Source of the DNA: Acidovorax sp. | Lineage (GTDB): Bacteria; Pseudomonadota; Gammaproteobacteria; Burkholderiales; Burkholderiaceae_C | Direction: 5' to 3' | NCBI GenBank assembly: GCA_031277855.1 | Contig: JAITLO010000032.1 | Span: 62,001 to 126,000 of the forward strand | DNA: 64,000 bases | In this document: in pieces, positions 6,593 to 37,546 of the stretch | Numbering within the stretch: the stretch's first letter is position 1 | Layout: the number at the start of each line of letters is the position of its first letter | Made by a program: the position numbers and the translations under genes | Notes under the pieces: model-generated | The model's input: only the letters and a program-made list of their open reading frames with translations | What the model was told of the DNA's origin: nothing | The model's database searches: none

Positions 6593-8836
<2,244 letters not shown>

Positions 8837-8845
8837 TCAGGGTCC

Positions 8846-8947
8846 CGCTCTTCTTCCGCCGGCATGAACCGGATCAAGTTCGTCGGGTTCGTTCGCAGCC
8901 ATTTTTCAATGGCTGCTCACATCTCAGCGCTTTCGCACACCCCGGAG
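8846..8947 (-). promoter_or_regulatory. TPP riboswitch (THI element)
   Basis: Read on the minus strand it shows the canonical THI boxes: CGGGGTGTGCG..GCGCTGAGATG, then ACCCGACGAACTTGATCCGG and TTCATGCCGGCGGAAGAAGAGC. The variable stem between them is GCAGCCATT/AATGGCTGC. Thiamine pyrophosphate binding is expected to favour the downstream terminator and shut off thiC. A TATACT-like -10 box lies just upstream (8956-8961, minus). Confidence 0.95.
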
Positions 8948-9072
8948 CAGGGGGCAGTATAGGACAAGAGGGAGATCGGCATGCTCACATGCCGTGGGTG
9001 ATGGTGGGTTTATATGTGGTCGATGCCGGAGTCCTTGCATCGCGTAACGTTCGGCTGACACAAAGTATCAAA

Positions 9073-9138: not shown

Positions 9139-10785
9139 TCACACCGCAATCGCCGACGCAGACCCCGCCTGCTTGCGCAGCTCGAACTTCTGGATCTTGC
9201 CGGTGCTGGTCTTAGGCAGCTCGCCAAAGATGATGATGCGTGGCACCTTGTAGCCGGCCAGGTGTTGCTTGCAGTGGGCAATGATGTCTGCCTCGGTCAC
9301 TACCGCGCCGGCCTTGATCTCGAGGAAGGCGCAGGGCGTTTCGCCCCACTTCTCGTCGGGCTTGGCCACCACGGCGGCGGCCAGCACGGCGGGGTGGCGG
9401 TACAGCACGTCTTCCACCTCGATGGAAGAGATGTTCTCGCCGCCGGAGATGATGATGTCCTTGCTGCGGTCCTTGATCTTGATGTAGCCGTCGGGGTATT
9501 GCACGGCCAGGTCGCCGCTGTGGAACCAGCCGCCGCGGAAGGCTTCATCGGTGGCCTGCGGGTTCTTCAGATAGCCCTTCATGGTGATGTTGCCGCGGAA
9601 CATGATTTCGCCCATGGTCTCGCCATCCTGGGGCACGGGCTGCATGGTTTCGGGGTCCATCACCTGGGCAGAGCGCTGCAGGTGGTAGCGCACGCCCTGA
9701 CGGGCGTTGAGGCGGGCGCGCTCGCCGATGTCCAAATCATCCCATGCTGCATGTTTGGCGCAGACAGTGGCCGGGCCATAGGTTTCGGTCAGGCCGTAGA
9801 CATGGGTCAGATCAAAGCCCATGGCCTCCATGCCTTCGATCATCGAGGCCGGGGGCGCGGCGCCGGCCACCATGGCCTTGATGCCGGCGGGCACGCCTTC
9901 TTTCATGGCCGCAGGTGCGTTGACCAGTAGCGACTGCACAATCGGTGCGCCGCAGTAGTGGGTCACGCCGTGGTCACGCATGGCATCAAAAATCGCCTGG
10001 GGCTCGACACGGCGCAGGCAGACATTCACGCCGGCGCGTGCGGCCACGGTCCAGGGGAAGCACCAGCCATTGCAGTGGAACATGGGCAGCGTCCACAGAT
10101 AGACCGCGTGCTTGGGCATATCCCATTCCAGCACATTGCTGATGGCGTTGATCTGGGCGCCACGGTGGTGGTAGACCACGCCCTTGGGGTTGCCGGTGGT
10201 GCCGCTGGTGTAGTTCAGCGCAATCGCGTCCCACTCGTTCTCGGGCAGCTCCCAGGCAAAGTCGGCATCGCCACGGGCCACAAAATCTTCATACGTGACC
10301 TCGCCCAGTTGCACGGCGGGCTCGCCATACAGCGCGTCTTCCACGCGGATGATGGTCAGCGGCGTGGTGGACTTGCGCAGCGGCAGGGCCTTGGCAATCA
10401 GGCCGGCGAATTCGGGGTCCACGATCAGCGCCTTGGCCTCGCCGTGGTCCAGCATAAAGGCCAGGGTTTCGGCGTCCAGCCGGGTGTTGAGGGTGTTGAG
10501 CACAGCCCCTGCCATGGGCACACCGAAGTGGGCCTCCACCATGGGCGGGGTGTTGGGCAGGATCACGGCCACGGTGTCGTTCTTGCCAATGCCGATTTGC
10601 TGCAGGCTGCTGGCCAGCTGGCGGCAGCGCGCATAGGTCTGGCTCCAGCTCTGGCGCAGCGCGCCATGCACGATGGCCAGGCGATCGGGGTAGACCGTGG
10701 CCGTGCGTTCGATGAAGTTCAGCGGGCTCAGGGCGGCAAAGTTGGCCGTGTTGCGATCCAGGTATTGGTTGTAGGGGCTGCTCAT
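9139..10785 (-). CDS. AMP-forming acyl-CoA synthetase (medium/long-chain or methylmercaptopropionate type)
   Basis: Activates a carboxylic acid to its acyl-CoA via an acyl-adenylate. The protein has 548 residues from the ATG at 10785 (MSSPYNQYL). The frame extends through a TTG at 10806 with no added support. Motifs: P-loop-like YTSGTTGNPKGV, adenylate motif HVYGLTETYGP, hinge GYIKIKDRSKDII and C-terminal PKTSTGKIQKFELR with the catalytic Lys. The subfamily (VYPDRLAIVHG near the N-terminus) includes AlkK-like medium-chain ligases and DmdB-like enzymes, so the acid is uncertain. It is a single gene with its own terminator, divergent from the peroxidase gene. Confidence 0.9.
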   Translation of the reverse strand: MSSPYNQYLDRNTANFAALSPLNFIERTATVYPDRLAIVHGALRQSWSQTYARCRQLASSLQQIGIGKNDTVAVILPNTPPMVEAHFGVPMAGAVLNTLNTRLDAETLAFMLDHGEAKALIVDPEFAGLIAKALPLRKSTTPLTIIRVEDALYGEPAVQLGEVTYEDFVARGDADFAWELPENEWDAIALNYTSGTTGNPKGVVYHHRGAQINAISNVLEWDMPKHAVYLWTLPMFHCNGWCFPWTVAARAGVNVCLRRVEPQAIFDAMRDHGVTHYCGAPIVQSLLVNAPAAMKEGVPAGIKAMVAGAAPPASMIEGMEAMGFDLTHVYGLTETYGPATVCAKHAAWDDLDIGERARLNARQGVRYHLQRSAQVMDPETMQPVPQDGETMGEIMFRGNITMKGYLKNPQATDEAFRGGWFHSGDLAVQYPDGYIKIKDRSKDIIISGGENISSIEVEDVLYRHPAVLAAAVVAKPDEKWGETPCAFLEIKAGAVVTEADIIAHCKQHLAGYKVPRIIIFGELPKTSTGKIQKFELRKQAGSASAIAV

Positions 10786-10993
10786 AAAAAGTGTCTCTCG
10801 AGTCAAGTTTTGTATTCATTTTGCTGCAACTGCACAACACAGGCTTACAGCCCCTGACAACCCTCACCTATTGCGCCGTAGTAGCTTCCATGCTCAGCAC
10901 CTACACGGACTTTGGATGCCACGCCTTTGATGCCGCGCAATACCGTGACCCCGGCTCTCAGGTGCAATAGAGACACCATCTGGACTGAGTCCA

Positions 10994-11018
10994 ATTCGGG
11001 CAGCAGCGCTGCCGGAAT
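10994..11018. promoter_or_regulatory. Near-perfect inverted repeat in the acyl-CoA synthetase/peroxidase intergenic region
   Basis: The 350-base gap between the divergent genes contains ATTCGGGCAGC-AGC-GCTGCCGGAAT, an 11-base arm with one mismatch. It lies about 120 bases upstream of the peroxidase start. It may be an operator or a message hairpin. Nothing else was recognised in this gap. Confidence 0.35.
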
Positions 11019-11136
11019 CGGCCAGCGCCAATGCCCCAAGGCTTGCAGTCCCCACTGCCGGCACAGCGGGTGGTGGTGGGTGCGGGGCCCAGGCTTCGCA
11101 CCAGGATTTCTCTACACAAGCGTCTGGAGCCACACA

Positions 11137-26511: not shown

Positions 26512-27625
26512 CATTACCGAGCCCCTGCAGCGCTGGCGCTTGCTGCTGGGCGAATCCGCCGAAGCGGCCTGCGGCAGCCTGGGTGAAGAAGCCCAGGCGG
26601 CGGATGCGGCCCTGGACTGGCTCTACGGCCGCGACCCCGAGCGTGCCCAGCGCGGCGAACGCGCGGCAGGACTGGGGCCTTCGGCCCTGTCCACACCCGA
26701 CTGGATCAACACCATCCACCAGTTGTTCCCCCAAGAGGTGATAGAACGGCTGGAGCGCGACGCCGTGGAGCGCTTCGGCATTGACGAGGTGGTGACCAAC
26801 CTCGAGGTGCTGGAACGCATAGAGCCCTCCGAATCGCTGCTGCGCGCAGTGCTGCACACCAAGCATTTGATGAACCCCGAGGTACTGGCCGCGGCGCGCA
26901 AGCTGGTGGCCGAGGTGGTGCGCCGCATCATGGAAAAAATGGCCACCGAGGTGCGCCAGGCCTTTGGCGGCACGCGCGACCGGCGCCGGCGCTCGCGCAT
27001 CAAGATTGCGCGCAACTTCGACTTCAAGCACACGATTGCGGCCAATCTGCACCGCTGGGACCCGAAAAGCCAGCGCCTGTATTTGCAGACCCCGCTGTTT
27101 AACAGCCGCACGCGCCGCCATATCGAGCCCTGGGACATCATCTTGCTCATCGACCAGAGCGGCTCCATGGTGGACTCGGTCATCCACAGCGCCGTGATGG
27201 CGGCCTGTCTGTGGCAGCTGCCGGGCATGCGCACGCGCCTGGTGGCCTTTGACACCGAGGTGGTGGACCTCACCGCCGATGTGGGCGACCCGGTGGAGCT
27301 GCTGATGAAGGTGCAGCTGGGCGGCGGCACCTATATCGCCAAGGCCGTGGGCTATGCCCAGTCGCTGATCAGCAACCCGGCCAAAAGCATGGTGGTGCTG
27401 GTCAGCGACTTTTATGAAGGCGGCAGCGAAAGCGAGCTGGTGCGCCGCGTGCGTGCGCTGACCGAGGCCGGCACCAAGGTGCTGGGCCTGGCCGCGCTGG
27501 ACGCCGAGGCCAAGCCCGCCTACGACCGGGACATGGCTGCGCGCCTGGTGAACGTGGGCGCCCAGGTGGGCGCCATGACGCCGGGCCAGTTGGCCGGTTG
27601 GCTGGCAGAAAAGGTGCAGGCATGA
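26501..27625 (+). CDS. VWA domain protein (YehP/CoxE-like)
   Basis: A 374-residue protein. A helical N-terminal half leads into a basic patch (TRDRRRRSRIKIARNFDFK) and a von Willebrand A domain with an intact MIDAS, DQSGS at residues 218-222. The T and D of the later MIDAS loops are probably in GGGTYIAKA and VLVSDFYEGG. VWA partners of MoxR ATPases bind divalent metal and present substrates. It overlaps both neighbours. In the E. coli yeh cluster the equivalent is YehP. Confidence 0.9.
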   Translation: MAFDITEPLQRWRLLLGESAEAACGSLGEEAQAADAALDWLYGRDPERAQRGERAAGLGPSALSTPDWINTIHQLFPQEVIERLERDAVERFGIDEVVTNLEVLERIEPSESLLRAVLHTKHLMNPEVLAAARKLVAEVVRRIMEKMATEVRQAFGGTRDRRRRSRIKIARNFDFKHTIAANLHRWDPKSQRLYLQTPLFNSRTRRHIEPWDIILLIDQSGSMVDSVIHSAVMAACLWQLPGMRTRLVAFDTEVVDLTADVGDPVELLMKVQLGGGTYIAKAVGYAQSLISNPAKSMVVLVSDFYEGGSESELVRRVRALTEAGTKVLGLAALDAEAKPAYDRDMAARLVNVGAQVGAMTPGQLAGWLAEKVQA

Positions 27626-29757
27626 GTCGCCACGATCTGCTGGAACTCACGCCCCAGGCCCTGACGGCCCTGGCCAATGCCGGCTTTGTGAAGCGTGCGC
27701 AAAAAGATGTGGCCGCCGGCCTGCTGCCGCGCATAGAGGAAAGCGGCGACGGCGAGGTGGCCGCGCATTTTGACGACGGCGTCAGCACCCGCTTGCCCGC
27801 CGGCCGCACGCTGCGCGATGCCAGCTGCTCCTGCCCGGCCAGCGGCATGTGCCGGCACCGTGTGATGCTGGTGCTGGCCTACCAGGCGCAGACACAAGTA
27901 CAGGCACCGGGACAAGACAGCGCTCCGGCGCCGGTCGCTGACAGCCAAGCTCCGGTCCAGGCCCCTGCCGAGGTCTGGACCCCGGCCGAGTTCGACGCCG
28001 CTGCCTTGGCCCAGGTGTTCTCGCCCTCGGTCCAGGCCCAGGCGGGTGAGCTGGCGGCCCAGCGCCCGGTGATTGCCCTGCTGCCTGGTGTGGGCGAGCA
28101 ACAGGCACCCAGTGCCCGCTTGCCCATGTGCAGCGTGCGTTTTTTCTCGCGCAGCTCCCTGGCCCATGCGCGTTGCGACTGCAAGCAGGGCAGCGGCTGC
28201 GCCCATGTGTTGCTGGCCGTATGGGCCTACCAGCAGGCCGGCCCCATGGCCGGCGATGCGCCCGAACGCATGGTGGAGCTCCAGCCGCGCACGGATGCTG
28301 CCCAGCCCACCCAAGCCCCCCGCAAGCTGCTGGACAGCGCGGCCGCACGCAGTGCGCAGCAAGCGCTGGAACAACTGCTTGCTGCCCTGTGGCTGGATGG
28401 TGCCAGCCAGCCCTTGCTGGCCCTGGCCACACGTTTTGAAGCCTTGCGCGCCCAGGTGCAAGCCCTGGGCTGGGCCTGGGTGGACGATGGGCTGGGCGAG
28501 CTGTGGCAGCTGCTGCAGGCCCACCAGGCACGCAGCAGCCGCTTTGATGCCCACCGCCTGCTGGCCGTGGCGACCGAACTCTGGGCCCGGCTGCGCGCTG
28601 CCGCCCATGCCGAGGGCTGCGCGCCCGATTCCGCACCGCCACTGCTCTCCAGCCAGATCCTGGGTCTGGGTGTGAAGGGCGAGCTGGCGCTGGACCATTT
28701 GCGCCTGGTGTCCCTGGGCGCGGCACTGTGGCGCAGCGAGACCGCCGAAGGCGCCAGCCTGCTGTTTGCCGACCCCGACACCCAAACCGTCACCGTGCTG
28801 GAGCGCGAGTGGCCGCTGGTGGATACGCAAAACCCAGGCCCTACGCCCACGGCCCTGCTGCAGCGCCGCGTGGCCGGTTTTCCGCTGCGCCAGCTGGCCA
28901 GCGGCCAGGTCATCACCAAAACCGCCGTGCGCCGCGCCAATGGCTTGATCGACATTGCTTCAAGCACGCGCCAGACCGGGGTGATGCCGCTGTCGCCCCG
29001 CTCCTGGGACGATCTGACCGCCCCGCTCAAACACCACAGCCTGGCCACACTGCGCCAGGCGCTGGAGAGCGCTCTACCCGACTTTGCCACCCCGCGCCAG
29101 GCCGCCACCGGCGCGGCCGCTGGCACCGGCGGTGCCCTGCATGTGCTGGCCAGCGCGCAGCTGCGGCTGCTGGAGCAGGCCTGGGATGCGGGCGCCCAGG
29201 TCTTGCATGCCAAGCTGGCAACAGCGGAGGAAAGCGGAGCAGATGCAGAGGAGCGTGATGTGCTGCACCTGGCCCTGCCCCACCATGCCGCCGCGCCTGC
29301 GGCCGTGGACACCCTGGCCCGCGCCCTGGCCGGCGAATGGGGGCCGCTGCGTGCCGTAGCCGGCAGCGTGCGCCTGCAGGCGGGTCAGTTGGTGATGCAG
29401 CCCCTGGCCTTGCTCACGGCCGAACGCGGCCTGGCCCTGCAGGCCGAGCCTGGTGCCAGCACACAGCAGCTGACACTGGCCCAGGGCCGCCCCGAACGCG
29501 GCGCGCTGCAGGCGCTGACCGATGCCTGCCTGGACCTGCTGGCCATCTGGCTGCGCCAAGGGCTGCGCCACCAGTCCGCCCCAGCCCTGGCACGCGCGGC
29601 CGAGCAGGCCACACGCCTGGACCAGGCCGGACTGCCACACAGCGCGGCCTTGATGCGGCAGGCGCTGGCACAGCTCAGAAGCAGCGAACACCCGGCCCTG
29701 CTGGCCAGTCTGGGAGCTTTGAGTCTGTTGCTGCAGCAGCCGCAATCCATGCAATAA
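27622..29757 (+). CDS. SWIM zinc-finger protein with two SWIM motifs (YehQ-like)
   Basis: A 711-residue protein starting at the ATG overlapping the VWA stop. Two SWIM-type zinc motifs of identical spacing (CxC-x5-CxH) are visible: C69,C71,C77,H79 and C185,C187,C193,H195. They are separated by a Gln/Pro/Ala-rich linker. SWIM fingers bind DNA or protein. The remaining approximately 500 residues are helical and Ala/Leu-rich with no recognised enzyme motif. It is the last gene of the operon; the IS5-like remnant begins 21 bases after the stop. Confidence 0.85.
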   Translation: MSRHDLLELTPQALTALANAGFVKRAQKDVAAGLLPRIEESGDGEVAAHFDDGVSTRLPAGRTLRDASCSCPASGMCRHRVMLVLAYQAQTQVQAPGQDSAPAPVADSQAPVQAPAEVWTPAEFDAAALAQVFSPSVQAQAGELAAQRPVIALLPGVGEQQAPSARLPMCSVRFFSRSSLAHARCDCKQGSGCAHVLLAVWAYQQAGPMAGDAPERMVELQPRTDAAQPTQAPRKLLDSAAARSAQQALEQLLAALWLDGASQPLLALATRFEALRAQVQALGWAWVDDGLGELWQLLQAHQARSSRFDAHRLLAVATELWARLRAAAHAEGCAPDSAPPLLSSQILGLGVKGELALDHLRLVSLGAALWRSETAEGASLLFADPDTQTVTVLEREWPLVDTQNPGPTPTALLQRRVAGFPLRQLASGQVITKTAVRRANGLIDIASSTRQTGVMPLSPRSWDDLTAPLKHHSLATLRQALESALPDFATPRQAATGAAAGTGGALHVLASAQLRLLEQAWDAGAQVLHAKLATAEESGADAEERDVLHLALPHHAAAPAAVDTLARALAGEWGPLRAVAGSVRLQAGQLVMQPLALLTAERGLALQAEPGASTQQLTLAQGRPERGALQALTDACLDLLAIWLRQGLRHQSAPALARAAEQATRLDQAGLPHSAALMRQALAQLRSSEHPALLASLGALSLLLQQPQSMQ

Positions 29758-29778
29758 GCACGGCCGCCACCGTGTGGC

Positions 29779-30460
29779 CTAGGGCCTGTTCACGTTAATC
29801 GTTGAGTGCATGCGGGAACACTGAAAATCGTGCACCTGCATGTACATCACTCGCGCTCAGTTCAAACGTATTCGTCACCTGCTGCCCAAGCCACGCGGCA
29901 GTAAATTGATTAGCCACTACAGGTTCCTCAACGCATTGGCTTATATGGCCAGCAATGGCTGCAAGTACTTAGTCAGTGGGCAATTCAGGCATTGAGCCTT
30001 GAATCCACCATCGTCAAAGTTCACCCCGATGGCTGTGGTGCTCAGAAAAAAACGGCCCCCAAGCCATAGGCAGAAGTCGGGGAGGCTGGAGTTGCAAGAT
30101 CCATACGATCGCAGCCAGCCGCAAAGATGCGCTTGTTTGGAGTCTGACGCCCGGGCAAGCAGGTGACTGTCCAGAGGGTTGCAGCCTCATTGATGCAGTT
30201 GGGGCTCAGGACAGCGCGGTGTATCTGCTGATGGATAGCGCCTATGGCAGCGATGAGTTGCGTTCAATGGCAGAGGCAAGAAATCTCATACCAATTGTTC
30301 CGCCCACCCGCAACGCAAGAATCCTTGGTTACTGGATAAGCAACGGTATCGCCAACGCAATGAAGTCGAACGGTTGTTTCGACGAATCAAAGCGTATCGA
30401 CGTGTAGTCCCCTCGATTTCTTGATCTGTGAGCAGCTTCGCTCACGTGAACAGGCCCTAG
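29779..30460 (+). mobile_element. Degenerate IS5-family (IS427-like) element
   Basis: A 17-bp exact inverted repeat, CTAGGGCCTGTTCACGT (29779-29795) and ACGTGAACAGGCCCTAG (30444-30460), marks both ends, with TA adjacent as target duplication. Inside, a DDE transposase is recognisable in pieces: MYITRAQFKRIRHLLPKP from 29839, STIVKVHPDGCGAQKK further on, and YGSDELRSMAEARNLIP to RNEVERLFRRIKAYRRV ending near 30407. Stops and frameshifts break it and the C-terminal end is missing. The element is about 680 bp, shorter than a complete copy, so it is dead. Confidence 0.88.
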
Positions 30461-30578
30461 ACGCATAGCTTTGGCAAGGAAAAAATATTGTTCGCCAAGA
30501 CTGAAATCGCATGAAAAACCTTGGTATAAAGGAAGTAAGTGATCGCTCTTTAATCTAGGCACTCATGAGGGAGTCACA

Positions 30579-31097
30579 GTGACAGCATCGACAATCACGC
30601 CTTGGGCCTGGAGCTTTACTTGCCAACCCAACGATGTGTATGTGAACAACCACCACCGCTGTTTGCATGGTCGCGAGGGTTTTACTGACCATACAAGGCG
30701 TTTCATTCGCTACTTGTATTGGTTTACTCAGCCTCTTGCTGTTCCGAGCCATTTTGTAGAAGAAGCGGCCAAGGGCACAGCCGCGCTGGCCGAGAGATTG
30801 TCTAGCGAGTCTTTTGGGGTGCAGCAACACTGTGGAGTGGAAGCGCCCGAGCTATCCAAAAGCCATCAAGACGAATTGGCACAAGCCATTAAGCAGTTGG
30901 TCACACCCACCGATAGCAATGTTTGGGTGGGTGCGGGCGACAGACCCCTGCGCGTTCAAGAAGCCATGCTTTCAGCCGCATGGCGGGCTTTGAATGAACC
31001 CGATATTCCATGCGATCAGTTGGAGGGGCTTTTGCGTGCAACGGTGCCAAGGCTCAATAGTGAGATGTGTGAAGTGAGTGAGACCGCGCTGAACTGA
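30579..31097 (+). CDS. Hypothetical protein, islet gene
   Basis: 172 residues with a GTG start preceded by GAGGGAG at good spacing. The sequence has no signal peptide or membrane segment. It contains Trp/His-rich N-terminal stretches (ITPWAWSFTCQPND, VNNHHRCLHGREGF) and a helical C-terminal half. I do not recognise a family. It lies between the IS5 remnant and the CvaA-like pseudogene, in DNA of lower G+C than the flanking operon. It could be part of the microcin locus or an unrelated passenger. Confidence 0.6.
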   Translation: MTASTITPWAWSFTCQPNDVYVNNHHRCLHGREGFTDHTRRFIRYLYWFTQPLAVPSHFVEEAAKGTAALAERLSSESFGVQQHCGVEAPELSKSHQDELAQAIKQLVTPTDSNVWVGAGDRPLRVQEAMLSAAWRALNEPDIPCDQLEGLLRATVPRLNSEMCEVSETALN

Positions 31098-31128
31098 TGC
31101 ACTCATAGAAACTGTCACAAAGACTGTC

Positions 31129-31510
31129 ATGACAACACCCAGCGCAAATACCAATGCCTCAAACGATGCAAGCAATGCGGAGGAGCCCAAAAGGCAGCTG
31201 TTTCGCCCAGAGGTTTACAGCAAGTTTGGCGCGCGCAGTGAAGGCGCAGTGGCGCATTTGCAACTGCCCAGCCAAAGTAACCAAGGTCAGCACCTCGGCA
31301 CTGTTGCGCCAAGAAATACCTGTGGCACTCGCGGGCACGGAAGACTATTACCGCGTGTGGGTGTTGCTCGATAAATCTTATGTGCATGCTTATGGCGAAA
31401 AAATCAAAGTCCAAAGCGGCATGAAGGTGGATGCGGATATGTTGCTGGAACAGCGGCGTATTTACGAGTGGCTTATTGAACCTGTTTTGAGTTTCTCCAA
31501 ATCCATATAA
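31129..31510 (+). pseudogene. CvaA/HlyD-type membrane fusion protein remnant
   Basis: Two overlapping frames each hold part of a bacteriocin-exporter membrane fusion protein. Frame 1 from the ATG at 31129 gives the usual N-terminus (AEEPKRQLFRPE) joined directly to YSKFGARSEGAV, which belongs far downstream in intact proteins. Frame 2 continues STSALLRQEIP, YYRVWVLLDKSYVHAYG, GMKVDADMLLEQRRIYEWLIEP, the C-terminal end of the CvaA family. A large internal deletion (coiled-coil and transmembrane region) plus a frameshift make it non-functional. The partner ABC exporter with peptidase C39 domain is absent from the window. Confidence 0.8.
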
Positions 31511-31675
31511 CCGGATGCTTTGCGTCGCTTATAACCTGACCTGTGCTCACACATAAATTTTTTCACGCAAACGGAACCACTTCTCATATCGAAAGGAATG
31601 CATTTATGAAAAAATAAATACATCACCATAGAAAAACGTCAAATCAATCTAATCAATTAAAGAAAAATAAAACAA

Positions 31676-31965
31676 ATGCAAGAATTAATTTTAGGTCAAA
31701 TCTCCCTTGTTTCTGGGGGGAGGTAACAGCCCAGGATGTTGCAACAGCAGCAACAACAATAGTTGCAGGAATAGCAGCTATAGAGGCTGCGACTGCAAAT
31801 CCTACCGGCATCGGTGCCGTTGTGTTAGGCGCAGTTGCTATCGGGCTGGGTGTAGTGGCAGATGTGCCAAGTCTCTTACAAGCAATCGCAGACACAATAA
31901 ACGCCGTATCTAGCTCTAGCGCGTGTGCATGCGGTTGCGTCTGTGTCTGTGGATGCGGTGGTTAA
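31676..31965 (+). pseudogene. Class II microcin (colicin V-like) precursor, frameshifted at the double-glycine site
   Basis: From the ATG at 31676 the leader MQELILGQISLVSGG has the length (15) and pattern of colicin V-type double-glycine leaders, then meets AGG-TAA. In the -1 frame the core follows at once: EVTAQDVATAATTIVAG..., with hydrophobic Gly/Ala/Val segments and a tail SSSSACACGCVCVCGCGG, ending at 31963-31965. The break lies in a run of six G that encodes Gly-Gly; seven G would restore a 97-residue precursor. It may be a dead gene, a sequencing error, a phase-variable tract or a frameshift site. Context (CvaA remnant before, two-TM protein after) supports the microcin reading. Confidence 0.75.
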
Positions 31966-31980
31966 ATTTAAATAAACCCA

Positions 31981-32058
31981 CGACTTACGCAAATTCGGTT
32001 AAGACAAGTGCTTCGCCGTAGGACACAAGCCATGCTCCATCCTGGTTTGCGCAAGTCC
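31981..32058. repeat. MITE-like element with inverted ends
   Basis: CGACTTACGCAAA at the left and TTTGCGCAAGTCC at the right are imperfect inverted repeats bounding about 78 bases without a reading frame, just after the microcin stop. The ends resemble those of IS5-group elements, so this is probably a non-autonomous derivative or an internal deletion product. Confidence 0.5.
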
Positions 32059-32120
32059 TATAAACCATTTTTCCCGGCAGATCAGAAATATTTTCATTGC
32101 CACTTAAACTTTGGAAAAAA

Positions 32121-32303
32121 ATGAACATGAGATCATTGCCATTTAGTTTTTATTTGTTTGTTGTTGGAGCAATTAGCAATGGAATTTTTGCATTTCGAGC
32201 TGAAACTTTTGTTATTTCATGTGGATTGGGTATTTCATCCGTTTTCTTACTTATCGCAGCATTTAGAGTTTTTTGGAGGGTAAAACGCAATACGAATATT
32301 TGA
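32121..32303 (+). CDS. Small two-helix membrane protein, candidate microcin immunity protein
   Basis: 60 residues from the ATG at 32121 (ATG at 32127 also possible; both have only a weak GGA upstream). Two hydrophobic helices, LPFSFYLFVVGAISNGIFAF and VISCGLGISSVFLLIAAF, with a basic C-terminus (RVKRNTNI). Immunity proteins of class II microcins are commonly 50-80 residues with two or three membrane helices and lie next to the precursor gene. The assignment rests on size, topology and position only. Confidence 0.5.
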   Translation: MNMRSLPFSFYLFVVGAISNGIFAFRAETFVISCGLGISSVFLLIAAFRVFWRVKRNTNI

Positions 32304-32440
32304 ATATCGGGAAGATGTTTAAAAAACAGGCTTATAACCAGTCGGGACTTAAAAAAGCCAAGTACGACACTTTGATGAGTGTCTTGAAAATCAGAACGGC
32401 TTTGGGTCAGAATTACATTAATCTGTTTTGATGGAGGCCT

Positions 32441-33214
32441 ATGTTGCGTATATTCATTCCATTAACGCTTTTACTTTCGACCATAGCATGCCATGCGCAG
32501 CAGCGCGAAAACCCTGATGCAACTATATTAAGTCGCGCCAAGTTAGTCAGCCAAACCGACCGAGTTGAGGTGTATCGTGATGATGTCGATGTGGAAGATG
32601 GGCTTGCCGCAAGCATCGACCAACTGTACGTGGCTGTTGAAGCGCAAGTGGGACAAAAATTTGATACTGCCGCATTAGGTAAAAAAATCAAGATTGTCAT
32701 CTCTAACAACGTGCGGGTCTCTCACGTCTGGCGGGGCTACCAGCACATGAGTGATCCGCAAGCTGTGATTTTTTTGAACACGCGTGCATACAACGGGTTC
32801 AGAGCTAAAACCAATGCAACGCTGGTTCACGAAATGACGCATCTTTTTACTTGGCGGTATAACAGTCACAGTCTACGCGAAGGCATTGCCGACTATGTGG
32901 CCAGAGCCGTAATGCCTAACACGGCAGTTGGGCCAAACGAGGCCAATGCCGTGCCGAATGGGGTGGGCTGGGCTTTCAAGTATTTAGGCTCCAATCACCT
33001 GGCGCCACCTGAACTAACAACAGACCCAGAATTTCGTAAGAATTACTATTTTTCGAGTTACGTGCTGGTAAAGGCACTTATCGAAAGAACTTCGATGGCT
33101 GATTTTTTGAAATTCTATGAAGGTGTCTATTCGGATACGATTTTTGAATCGACCTTCAAGGTCAAACGGCTGGATTTAATCTGTGAATTAAAACTTGCGA
33201 CGGATTGCAAATGA
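32441..33214 (+). CDS. Secreted gluzincin-type metalloprotease
   Basis: 257 residues. The ATG at 32441 has a perfect GGAGG at seven bases. The N-terminal signal (MLRIFIPLTLLLSTIACHA) directs export. Zinc ligands H130 and H134 with catalytic E131 appear in LVHEMTHLF, and E147 in SLREGIADYV is the third ligand, the gluzincin (HExxH plus E) pattern also seen in peptidase MA-like proteins. The stop overlaps the next ATG, so it forms a pair with the TraB-like gene. Substrate unknown. AT-rich codon use marks it as part of the acquired islet. Confidence 0.8.
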   Translation: MLRIFIPLTLLLSTIACHAQQRENPDATILSRAKLVSQTDRVEVYRDDVDVEDGLAASIDQLYVAVEAQVGQKFDTAALGKKIKIVISNNVRVSHVWRGYQHMSDPQAVIFLNTRAYNGFRAKTNATLVHEMTHLFTWRYNSHSLREGIADYVARAVMPNTAVGPNEANAVPNGVGWAFKYLGSNHLAPPELTTDPEFRKNYYFSSYVLVKALIERTSMADFLKFYEGVYSDTIFESTFKVKRLDLICELKLATDCK

Positions 33215-34179
33215 TCAAATTTCTAAACTCTTTCTCCCGTTTTTTGCGCAAATTTATTGCCTACATATTCATTCTCGCACCCATGTTGGTGTGTGCACAG
33301 ACTCAACAGACTCAAAGCACTGATAACAGCTGCCCACCTCCTGCTATGCCGCGTGAACAACAGAGGGCGTATATTGCGAATACACCTGCTTTAAATGCAG
33401 GTTTTTTATGGCACATTGAAAAAGACGGGCGGACTTCGTGGCTTTATGGCACCATGCATATCAATCATATTGATTATGTAAAACCAGGCTCACAGATCAT
33501 GAGTGGACTGCGTAACAGTGACGTTTTAGCGGTAGAAACTAATCCATTAGAAATCAAGAACGCAAATGTTTCGTTGACTGTGCCAGATTTTAAACTTACA
33601 CATGTGCAACTTGAACGCCTCAAAAATGCATATTCAACTGAATGTCTAGCTTTCAACCCAGATAAGATGCCCCCCTCCCGCGTGTTTATTCCGTTAAAGA
33701 ATTCACAGGCACAGAGAGAGGGTTTGTTTTTTGTCTACAGCCATGACTTAATACTCGCGGGAATAGCAAAAAAGATAGGCAAACCAATCATCGAGCTTGA
33801 AAATTTGCAGCAAAAGCTATCGGTTTCTAAGCCCACATCCCAATCTGAATTTGACATAGATTTTGACAAAACCATGAGGCAGATTGAAACGGGGGAAATG
33901 CGTGCTGGTATACTGAGATTGAGTATGGCTTGGCGAAAAAATGACTGGCAAATCATGGTGAAGTTGGAGCAAGACTTAACGGACTCTCAGCCTGATTTTG
34001 CTCATCGACTGCTTGACCAGCGTAATGAATTGATGGCACAGAAAATTGATGCCCTTCATATAGAAGGGAAGAAAGTGTTTGTCGCTGTCGGTGCTTTGCA
34101 CATGGCTGGTAAAAATAGTCTTATCAACCTGCTACAAAACAAGGGCTATATTGTTACTTTTGTGCCAATGCGAAACTGA
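33211..34179 (+). CDS. TraB/GumN family (TIKI-like) protein
   Basis: 322 residues from the ATG at 33211 (the frame also has a TTG at 33205). An N-terminal signal segment (FIAYIFILAPMLVCA) indicates export. The family signature is intact: two GxxH motifs (LYGTMHI and VGALHMAG), a conserved Glu (VLAVETNP) and Arg (LLDQRNELMAQKI). TraB/TIKI proteins are proposed metal-dependent peptidases; the enterococcal namesake shuts off a peptide pheromone. Translational coupling with a metalloprotease and proximity to a microcin gene suggest a role in peptide processing or self-protection. This is inference. Confidence 0.85.
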   Translation: MIKFLNSFSRFLRKFIAYIFILAPMLVCAQTQQTQSTDNSCPPPAMPREQQRAYIANTPALNAGFLWHIEKDGRTSWLYGTMHINHIDYVKPGSQIMSGLRNSDVLAVETNPLEIKNANVSLTVPDFKLTHVQLERLKNAYSTECLAFNPDKMPPSRVFIPLKNSQAQREGLFFVYSHDLILAGIAKKIGKPIIELENLQQKLSVSKPTSQSEFDIDFDKTMRQIETGEMRAGILRLSMAWRKNDWQIMVKLEQDLTDSQPDFAHRLLDQRNELMAQKIDALHIEGKKVFVAVGALHMAGKNSLINLLQNKGYIVTFVPMRN

Positions 34180-34287
34180 TCCACACTGTTGCAACGTGTG
34201 CAGTCCCATCGGTGTTTGTGATGTAACGAGCGGTCTGATCTTGCCCCCGGGAAATGTAGTTCTTAGCTTTGTTGGAAATCACGTCAA

Positions 34288-34560
34288 TGGAGCAAGAAAT
34301 GGTAGATAAGCAAGTGCGTGCGCAGTACACGCGAGCGTTCAAGCAGGAGGCCGTACAGCAGGTGCGTAGCGGTCCCAGCTTGGGCAACTGGGTACGTTGA
34401 GGGGCAAGGTCGCTTGGGCGGTTTTGCTGGTGATGACAAGGAGCCCAAGGTCACAGCAGAGCAAATGGAGATCAGCAGGCGGCATTCAACGCTGGGCCAC
34501 CTCAGCCCCATGCAGTATGAGCAGCGCTGGTACGAGGCACAGCGTAAAAAGGCCGCGTAG
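34288..34560 (+). mobile_element. IS3-family remnant with OrfA-OrfB deletion
   Basis: From the ATG at 34288 the N-terminus of an IS3-type OrfA is readable (VRAQYTRAFKQEAVQQVRSG), then a frameshifted GRLGGFAGDDKEPKVTAEQM from the end of OrfA. This is joined directly to the last residues of OrfB, RRHSTLGHLSPMQYEQRWYE. Nearly all of OrfB, including the DDE core, is deleted. It bounds the AT-rich islet on the right. Confidence 0.85.
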
Positions 34561-34809
34561 ACCGTGGGCTGAGAGCTGCACAAAACAGAGGCAAGATCAG
34601 GCTGCTTGCAGCCAGGCACGACGGAGCCAGTCGTGCTGCCGGCATCGGACGCTTTTTTCTGAGCCTGACAGCGGCTTTCAGCCGCTTTTCTGCCTGCACT
34701 GCAGCATTTTTTCGGATGAATTCAGTAAAAAACGTAGCACCAAAAGCCCATGGGGATTGGCCCAGCATCTTTTTTCACAAAAAATAGCGGCAAGCCCTTG
34801 ATTTTTCCC

Positions 34810-34838
34810 GCCGAATGTATAATTAGAAGATATTCGGC
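34810..34838 (+). promoter_or_regulatory. rpoD promoter with palindrome spanning the -10 box
   Basis: A perfect -10 TATAAT lies at 34818-34823, inside the inverted repeat GCCGAAT...ATTCGGC (34810-34816 and 34832-34838). The -35 is weak. Transcription from here would give rpoD a leader of about 255 bases. No gene is visible between 34561 and 35086. Confidence 0.5.
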
Positions 34839-35086
34839 AAGAGCGACAGCAACACCTCCGGACCCGGCCCCCGTGACAGACATCACGTGGATTGCAGCAA
34901 GTGCATGGCCAATTTCCCCGCAAGGATTGCACACCAAATGTTCGCCCCCCCATCTTGCCACCGGGAGCCCGTCCGCTCCCCACATGCGGCTGCTTGAGCT
35001 GCTGCATGTGTTGAATGCGCCGGGTATTGAGGCGCTTGCTTTCCATCTTTGTTTTCTGTGTGTTCGCTTTTCCGTGAGGTGTGTGC

Positions 35087-37546
<2,460 letters not shown>

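What the first reader, a model, noticed from the sequence alone, without database searches (positions are those of the whole stretch)
31676..31965. Class II microcin-like precursor interrupted in a G6 run at its Gly-Gly cleavage site
The leader MQELILGQISLVSGG has exactly the length and pattern of colicin V-type leaders (MRTLTLNELDSVSGG from memory). The reading frame then stops three bases after the six G that encode Gly-Gly, while the -1 frame continues immediately with a hydrophobic Gly/Ala core of about 80 residues. One more G restores the precursor. A homopolymer at this exact point could be an inactivating indel, a sequencing error, a phase-variable switch, or a frameshift/slippage site. 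Class II microcins are known mainly from Enterobacteriaceae, so a copy in a Comamonas-like bacterium is unexpected.
Basis: partly seen in the sequence, partly recalled or inferred. Interest (0 to 1): 0.85.

Follow-up and report, generated by a model that had tools for sequence, protein, structure and literature searches.

The report
Broken microcin-like gene in decayed island
A bacterium carries what look like the worn-out remains of a gene cluster for a small antibacterial peptide: the peptide gene is split between two reading frames and its export machinery is broken or missing, so it is most likely a molecular fossil rather than a switch.

Summary
A 15-residue double-glycine leader ends at a six-G run and stops one codon later. 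The -1 frame continues as an 80-residue Ala/Val/Gly-rich core ending in six alternating cysteines. The leader pattern occurs once in the window and in 0 of 60 shuffles.

The context points to a relic. Upstream lies the C-terminal piece of a CvaA-type membrane fusion protein; an N-terminal piece is only probable. Relatives of that piece lie near a C39 exporter in 25 of 29 short loci and 35 of 40 larger regions. The window's own genome (95.5% complete draft) shows no C39 peptidase. The locus lies in a 5.1-kb low-GC island with IS remnants; G035, the closest of four genus genomes compared, has 45 bp there.

The core has no convincing relative among 53 genus, 399 family or 399 order genomes, own genome included, so its original frame cannot be checked by comparison. 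Such loci are not foreign here: at least two species of the genus hold intact-looking ones. Phase variation or programmed frameshifting is unlikely, though the RNA after the G run is unusually structured.

The parts
31676..31726 (+). Leader frame: 15-residue double-glycine leader, one Arg codon, stop
   Evidence: Translation; pattern once in window, 0 of 60 shuffles
31715..31720 (+). Six-G run at the two Gly codons where the frames part
   Evidence: Sequence, run list
31723..31965 (+). Core frame: 80 residues, Ala/Val/Gly rich, tail SSSSACACGCVCVCGCGG (six alternating Cys), stop at 31963-31965
   Evidence: Translation; composition; no Pfam match, only weak sub-threshold NCBIfam matches
31722..31802 (+). 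Predicted stable RNA structure directly after the G run
   Evidence: z -3.5, -3.9 and -4.5; 4 of 186 control coding windows reach -3.3
31277..31510 (+). C-terminal fragment of a CvaA/HlyD-type membrane fusion protein (remnant)
   Evidence: TIGR01843 E 2.5e-9 on ORF 31154-31510; 73 bits to a profile of 35 relatives, profile positions 334-416 of 418
31129..31275 (+). Probable N-terminal fragment of the same fusion protein in another frame, LFRPE motif at 31198; about 300 codons would be missing between the pieces
   Evidence: For: [LIM]FRPE is in the first 110 residues of 18 of 40 relatives and once in the window's six frames. Against: 0 tblastn hits in 40 regions and no score above shuffles in the profile search
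30579..31097 (+). Possible C-terminal remnant of a TauD-like 2-oxoglutarate dioxygenase plus unmatched tail
   Evidence: PF02668 E 0.0012, 19.3 bits, below the cut-off of 27
32121..32303 (+). Open 60-residue ORF with hydrophobic stretches that could form two membrane helices; candidate immunity gene
   Evidence: Hydropathy; no relative in the 52 other genus genomes
31970..32076 (+). Dispersed repeat between core and candidate immunity gene
   Evidence: 91-94% copies listed at three other places in the same genome, weaker copies in other genus genomes
29779..30460 (+). IS remnant with 17-nt perfect terminal inverted repeats, transposase not intact
   Evidence: Inverted repeat; 95-96% to a G035 copy that holds an extra stretch; weak DDE_Tnp_1, E 0.058, on a 62-aa ORF
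34235..34602 (+). IS3-family remnants at the right side of the island
   Evidence: Plasmid matches annotated IS3 family transposase; genus copies
29737..34817 (.). Low-GC island, absent from G035, which has 45 bp between the same flanks
   Evidence: Alignment; GC 0.38-0.55 over most of it against about 0.70 on the left and 0.58-0.63 on the right

Best explanation
The locus is the decayed remnant of a class II microcin-type (double-glycine leader) bacteriocin cluster, probably acquired horizontally. When intact it would have worked as such clusters do: the leader targets the precursor to a C39-peptidase ABC exporter, which cuts after Gly-Gly and passes the core through the membrane fusion protein and an outer-membrane channel, while a small membrane protein protects the producer. 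Here the precursor is split between two frames at its cleavage site, only a piece (probably two) of the fusion protein is left, no C39 exporter is found in the genome as held, and IS remnants lie at both sides of the island. Shown: the split frames, the fusion-protein C-terminal remnant, no C39 match in the held genome, the island. Inferred: that the split is a real mutation, that the core was a bacteriocin, that the 60-residue ORF is its immunity gene, the horizontal origin and the order of loss.
For: Leader and core frames meet at the Gly-Gly codons. Fusion-protein remnant upstream; its relatives lie near a C39 exporter in 25 of 29 short loci and 35 of 40 larger regions, and one plasmid relative is annotated colicin V secretion protein CvaA. 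The best plasmid match (Janthinobacterium lividum) has an exporter and a double-glycine Gly/Ala-rich ORF nearby. No Peptidase_C39 in G000, while the same search rings in 8 of 14 control genomes and 29 of 53 genus genomes. Island absent from G035. The order secretion gene - precursor - small downstream ORF resembles the Moraxella mcbABCI locus, whose 74-aa downstream ORF is the immunity factor (PMC2761928, abstract and passages).
Against: The core has no convincing relative, so neither its original frame nor its function can be checked by comparison. Its similarity to the Janthinobacterium core is not significant (104 of 1000 shuffles as good; 69 of 1000 without the Cys tail). The N-terminal fusion-protein piece rests on one motif and failed both similarity searches. 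The TauD match is below its cut-off. The genome is a 49-contig draft at 95.5%, so an exporter could be in the missing part. The core frame has no stop inside, so if broken it broke recently.
Confidence: 0.8

Rival explanations
1. Sequencing or assembly error at the G run: the precursor gene is really in one frame, and only the exporter genes are decayed.
For: The break is at a homopolymer; the core frame is otherwise open. The assembly is a draft in 49 contigs.
Against: Eleven other G/C runs of six or seven lie in frame inside long ORFs of the window, though those ORFs were chosen for being open. The fusion-protein remnant cannot be a homopolymer error.
Confidence: 0.15
2. Programmed -1 frameshifting or slippage at the G run makes the full precursor from two frames, helped by the RNA structure behind it.
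For: The core frame is the -1 frame; the 81 nt behind the run have the lowest z of 335 island windows (-4.5; -3.5, -3.9), and two precursors of the genus show no such structure at this place (z -0.5 and +0.6).
Against: That start was added by hand; on the regular grid its neighbour (-3.59) ties with an unrelated place at 30667, and 4 of 186 ordinary coding windows reach -3.3. In phase the codons are TCT GGG GGG AGG TAA, not the X XXY YYZ heptamer of two-site slippage (recalled rule). With no C39 exporter found the product could not be matured. No relative with this arrangement was found.
Confidence: 0.04
3. Phase-variable switch at the G run.
For: Homopolymer at a frame-deciding place.
Against: Six G is short and common (20 G/C runs of six or more in 64 kb); the rest of the cluster looks broken.
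Confidence: 0.03
4. Chance: leader and core are unrelated frames that happen to touch.
For: No convincing relative of the core; 115 of 5000 shuffles keep the core frame open.
Against: Leader pattern 0 of 60 shuffles, a fusion-protein remnant of the right type ending 165 nt upstream, hydrophobic core beginning at the cleavage site.
Confidence: 0.05

Closest known systems
Class II microcins (microcin V/colicin V type; PMC10233263, passages seen)
   Same: 15-residue leader ending in Gly-Gly, hydrophobic core of bacteriocin size, CvaA-type fusion protein piece beside it, small hydrophobic ORF next door
   Different: Precursor split between frames, fusion protein in pieces, exporter not found, core without relatives, alternating-Cys tail
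Moraxella catarrhalis mcbABCI bacteriocin locus (PMC2761928, abstract and passages seen)
   Same: Secretion genes, then double-glycine precursor, then short immunity ORF
   Different: There the locus is active; here the exporter is not found and precursor and fusion protein are broken
Colicin V-like clusters of two species of the same genus (G049, G051; loci L129, L076)
   Same: 15-residue leader, Gly/Ala-rich core, CvaA-type fusion protein (45-46% to the fragment)
   Different: C39 exporter beside them; in L129 also an outer-membrane efflux protein and a JmjC-domain gene; cores without a Cys tail
Janthinobacterium lividum plasmid locus NZ_CP139977.1 (L137)
   Same: Best plasmid match to the fusion-protein fragment (45%), double-glycine Gly/Ala-rich ORF of 82 residues
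   Different: 17-residue leader, exporter present, no significant core similarity

Membership tests
Class II microcin precursor | N-terminal leader of 15-18 residues ending GG or GA | tested here: met
   15 residues ending SGG; definition from PMC10233263 passages
Class II microcin precursor | Leader and core in one open reading frame | tested here: not met
   Leader frame stops after one more codon; core is in the -1 frame
Class II microcin precursor | Sequence relation to verified class II microcins | tested here: inconclusive
   No Pfam hit, no NCBIfam hit near its cut-off, best PDB match E 0.52; the ten verified microcins were not compared one by one
Class II microcin cluster | C39-peptidase ABC exporter (PCAT) | tested here: not met
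   No PF03412 match in the held genome, 95.5% complete
Class II microcin cluster | Intact membrane fusion protein of CvaA type | tested here: not met
   Right family, but only a C-terminal piece and a probable N-terminal piece remain
Class II microcin cluster | Adjacent immunity protein of 51-216 residues, usually membrane-bound | tested here: inconclusive
   60-residue hydrophobic ORF 155 nt downstream; no relatives in the genus genomes; function untestable here
Class IIb (siderophore) microcin | Gly/Ser-rich C-terminal siderophore motif | tested here: not met
   Tail is Cys/Gly-rich with four Ser before it; judged by eye
Class II microcin | Antibacterial activity | not testable with these tools
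   Needs bench work
Programmed -1 frameshift site | In-phase slippery heptamer X XXY YYZ | tested here: not met
   TCT GGG GGG AGG in phase; rule recalled
Programmed -1 frameshift site | Stimulating RNA structure just downstream | tested here: inconclusive
   z -3.5 to -4.5, but 4 of 186 coding windows reach -3.3

The most novel reading that the evidence does not exclude
The core belongs to a so far undescribed kind of microcin in which a strictly alternating Cys tail (C-x-C-x-C-x-C-x-C-x-C-G-G) takes the place of the siderophore tail of class IIb microcins, for example by binding a metal or a cofactor and so gaining uptake by the target cell; what is seen here is its first, broken, representative.
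Probability: 0.08. Interest if true: 0.6.

Novelty: new member of a known kind. Interest (0 to 1): 0.3.

Why it matters
It suggests that class II microcin-type loci reach into this betaproteobacterial genus and can be lost there, perhaps leaving an open immunity gene behind. Surveys that require intact ORFs and exporters would miss such relics. The core, if ever found intact, would be a new sequence family with an unusual cysteine tail.

Tried and rejected
Searches for the core: own genome, 53 genus genomes, 399 family genomes, 399 order genomes, each set including the own genome; genome contigs and viral-contig scans, plasmids, PDB. In the genus, 37 of 53 genomes had some match at E up to 1, the best besides the window itself 0.011. 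In the family, 10 genomes besides the own had a match at E up to 0.01, the best 8.8e-4: six lie in open frames of 221-761 residues, two in open frames of 112 and 125, and two in frames of 64 and 135 with a stop inside. I judged all ten compositional (the core is Ala/Val/Gly rich) and did not follow them up one by one.

Fusion-protein N-terminal piece: 0 tblastn hits in 40 regions and no score above shuffles in a profile search; kept only as probable on the LFRPE motif.

Immunity reading of the downstream ORF: no relatives in the other 52 genus genomes, so only position, size and hydropathy support it.

TauD-like piece: no relative in genome contigs; in 399 family genomes only the own and a weak hit inside an 828-residue frame. 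HExxH protein 32441-33214: only the own genome among 185 family genomes. Promoter and terminator scans found 4 and 4 sites against 4.1 and 3.7 expected.

Recoding and phase variation: considered and put low, see rivals. Paper searches: 'class II microcin' with 'Burkholderiales' gave 0 papers; a broad search with Comamonas and related terms listed 20 of 3,922 papers, none of which held the words class II microcin; a search on programmed frameshift and bacteriocin precursors listed 10 of 88, none with the words programmed frameshift. Searches were further paper searches. All this covers the held open-access library only.

Full report
What is there. The leader frame starting at 31676 reads MQELILGQISLVSGGR and stops. 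The six G at 31715-31720 are its two Gly codons. The -1 frame continues without a stop for 80 residues to 31965, rich in Ala, Val and Gly and ending SSSSACACGCVCVCGCGG. The leader pattern occurs once in six frames of the window and in 0 of 60 shuffles; the core frame stays open in 115 of 5000 shuffles. The pattern was written after seeing the leader.

What surrounds it. The ORF at 31154-31510 carries the C-terminal end of a HlyD/CvaA-type membrane fusion protein (TIGR01843, E 2.5e-9). A profile of 35 relatives (of 40; five without a recognised N-terminal motif were dropped) gives it 73 bits over positions 334-416 of 418. The preceding frame begins with a stretch containing LFRPE. The motif [LIM]FRPE is in the N-terminal 110 residues of 18 of 40 relatives and occurs once in the window's six frames. 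But this piece had no tblastn hit in the 40 regions and did not rise above shuffles in the profile search, so it is only probable. If it is the N-terminus, about 300 codons are missing between the two pieces. Farther upstream lies a possible piece of a TauD-like dioxygenase (PF02668, E 0.0012, below cut-off). Downstream come a dispersed repeat (31970-32076), a 60-residue hydrophobic ORF (32121-32303), an HExxH-containing protein (BSP, E 8e-5, just below cut-off) and a TraB/GumN-family protein (E 1.8e-43). IS remnants lie on both sides.

Island. In G035 the gene at 27598-29757 and rpoD are almost adjacent. Window 29000-29736 and 34818-35700 align to L131 8020-8756 and 8802-9700, so 5,081 bp in the window stand against 45 bp there. 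Aligned parts of the flanking proteins are 88-99% identical to G035, the closest of four genus genomes compared. The island has lower GC than its flanks.

Exporter. Peptidase_C39 has no match in the window's genome (95.5% complete, 49 contigs), while the same search rings in 8 of 14 controls. In the genus, 29 of 53 genomes have some match; three (G027, G049, G051) have full-length frames above 100 bits. Others range from C39-only frames of 272-306 residues through two long frames at 72 and 53 bits (G037, G032) to long frames near the cut-off, which I take for degenerate C39 domains; that split is my reading of the table. Only the three strongest were looked at for precursors.

Relatives of the setting. 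140 of 399 family genomes (own included) have a relative of the fusion-protein fragment. Of 29 short loci of the best other matches, 25 hold a C39 motif; of 40 larger regions, chosen from the best matches plus one genus genome, 35 do. Several carry short double-glycine ORFs. Two species of the same genus, G051 (L076) and G049 (L129), have 15-residue leaders followed by Gly/Ala-rich cores; in L129 the row is JmjC-domain protein, hydrophobic protein, precursor, fusion protein, C39 exporter, outer-membrane efflux protein. In G027 (L128) no double-glycine ORF passed my filter. On plasmids, 192 records hold a relative of the fragment; among those listed one is annotated as colicin V secretion protein CvaA (37% over 69% of the query). 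The best is a Janthinobacterium lividum plasmid with exporter and an 82-residue double-glycine ORF.

Relatives of the core. None convincing in 53 genus, 399 family or 399 order genomes, nor in plasmids, viral or genome contigs; the weak matches are told under Tried and rejected. The core does not match the Janthinobacterium core (no BLASTP alignment; 104 of 1000 shuffles as good, 69 of 1000 without the Cys tail) or the two genus cores (193 and 235 of 1000). The alternating-Cys tail was seen in no other double-glycine ORF among 134 held loci; besides copies of the window itself, one such run lies inside an unrelated frame of L015. Lack of core similarity is usual for class II microcins (PMC10233263, passages), but it means that the original frame cannot be checked.

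Mechanism. In class II microcins the C39 domain cuts after the double glycine while the core passes through exporter, fusion protein and TolC (PMC10233263, passages). In Moraxella two secretion genes are followed by the precursor and a short immunity ORF (PMC2761928, abstract and passages). The window keeps a similar order, with exporter not found, fusion protein in pieces and precursor split. The most economical reading is a relic. Whether the split in the precursor came first cannot be told.

Recoding. The 81 nt after the G run fold better than shuffles (z -3.49 with 1 of 200 shuffles as low; -3.86 with 0 of 200; -4.51 with 100 shuffles). This is the lowest of 335 island windows, but that start was added by hand to the 15-nt grid; its grid neighbours give -3.59 and -3.31, and 30667 also gives -3.59. 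In 186 coding control windows four reach -3.3. Two precursors of the genus show no such structure there. The in-phase codons do not form the usual heptamer, and no exporter was found, so I put recoding at 4%.

Literature. The class II microcin survey seen here covers Enterobacterales, Vibrionaceae and Pasteurellaceae (PMC9746304: abstract, results part 1 of 3, section 9, pipeline section). Candidates also come from Erwinia, Pantoea and Xanthomonas (PMC13174018, passages), and microcin V-like genes from Xylella (PMC10233263, passages). A search for class II microcin with Burkholderiales returned none in the held library. PMC11494933 was seen as abstract and outline only.

Noticed in passing
L129 4215-5366 and the L076 ORF at 9918-11072: A JmjC_2-domain protein (PF08007, E 7.4e-27 in L129) lies in front of the microcin-like cluster; the L076 ORF has the same length and relative place but was not scanned. 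The window's remnant cluster also has a possible 2-oxoglutarate dioxygenase piece in front.
   Followed up: partly
L022, L032/L061, L046, L057, L060, L067, L077, L079, L083: Short double-glycine ORFs with C-terminal motifs, often repeated, such as GPKGGW, APKGTW or APKSTW, near fusion proteins and mostly C39 exporters in the family.
   Followed up: no
window 32441-33214 and 33205-34179: HExxH-containing protein and TraB/GumN-family protein in abutting genes inside the island; the first is found only in the own genome among 185 family genomes.
   Followed up: partly
window 31970-32076: Repeat of about 100 bp dispersed in this genome (three more places listed at 91-94%) and in other genus genomes.
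   Followed up: partly
window 31606-31617: A start codon with a Shine-Dalgarno-like sequence (GAAAGGA) opens a three-codon frame (MKK, stop) 70 nt before the leader start; meaning unknown.
   Followed up: no
window 8834-8954: TPP riboswitch on the minus strand, just over the Rfam threshold.
   Followed up: no
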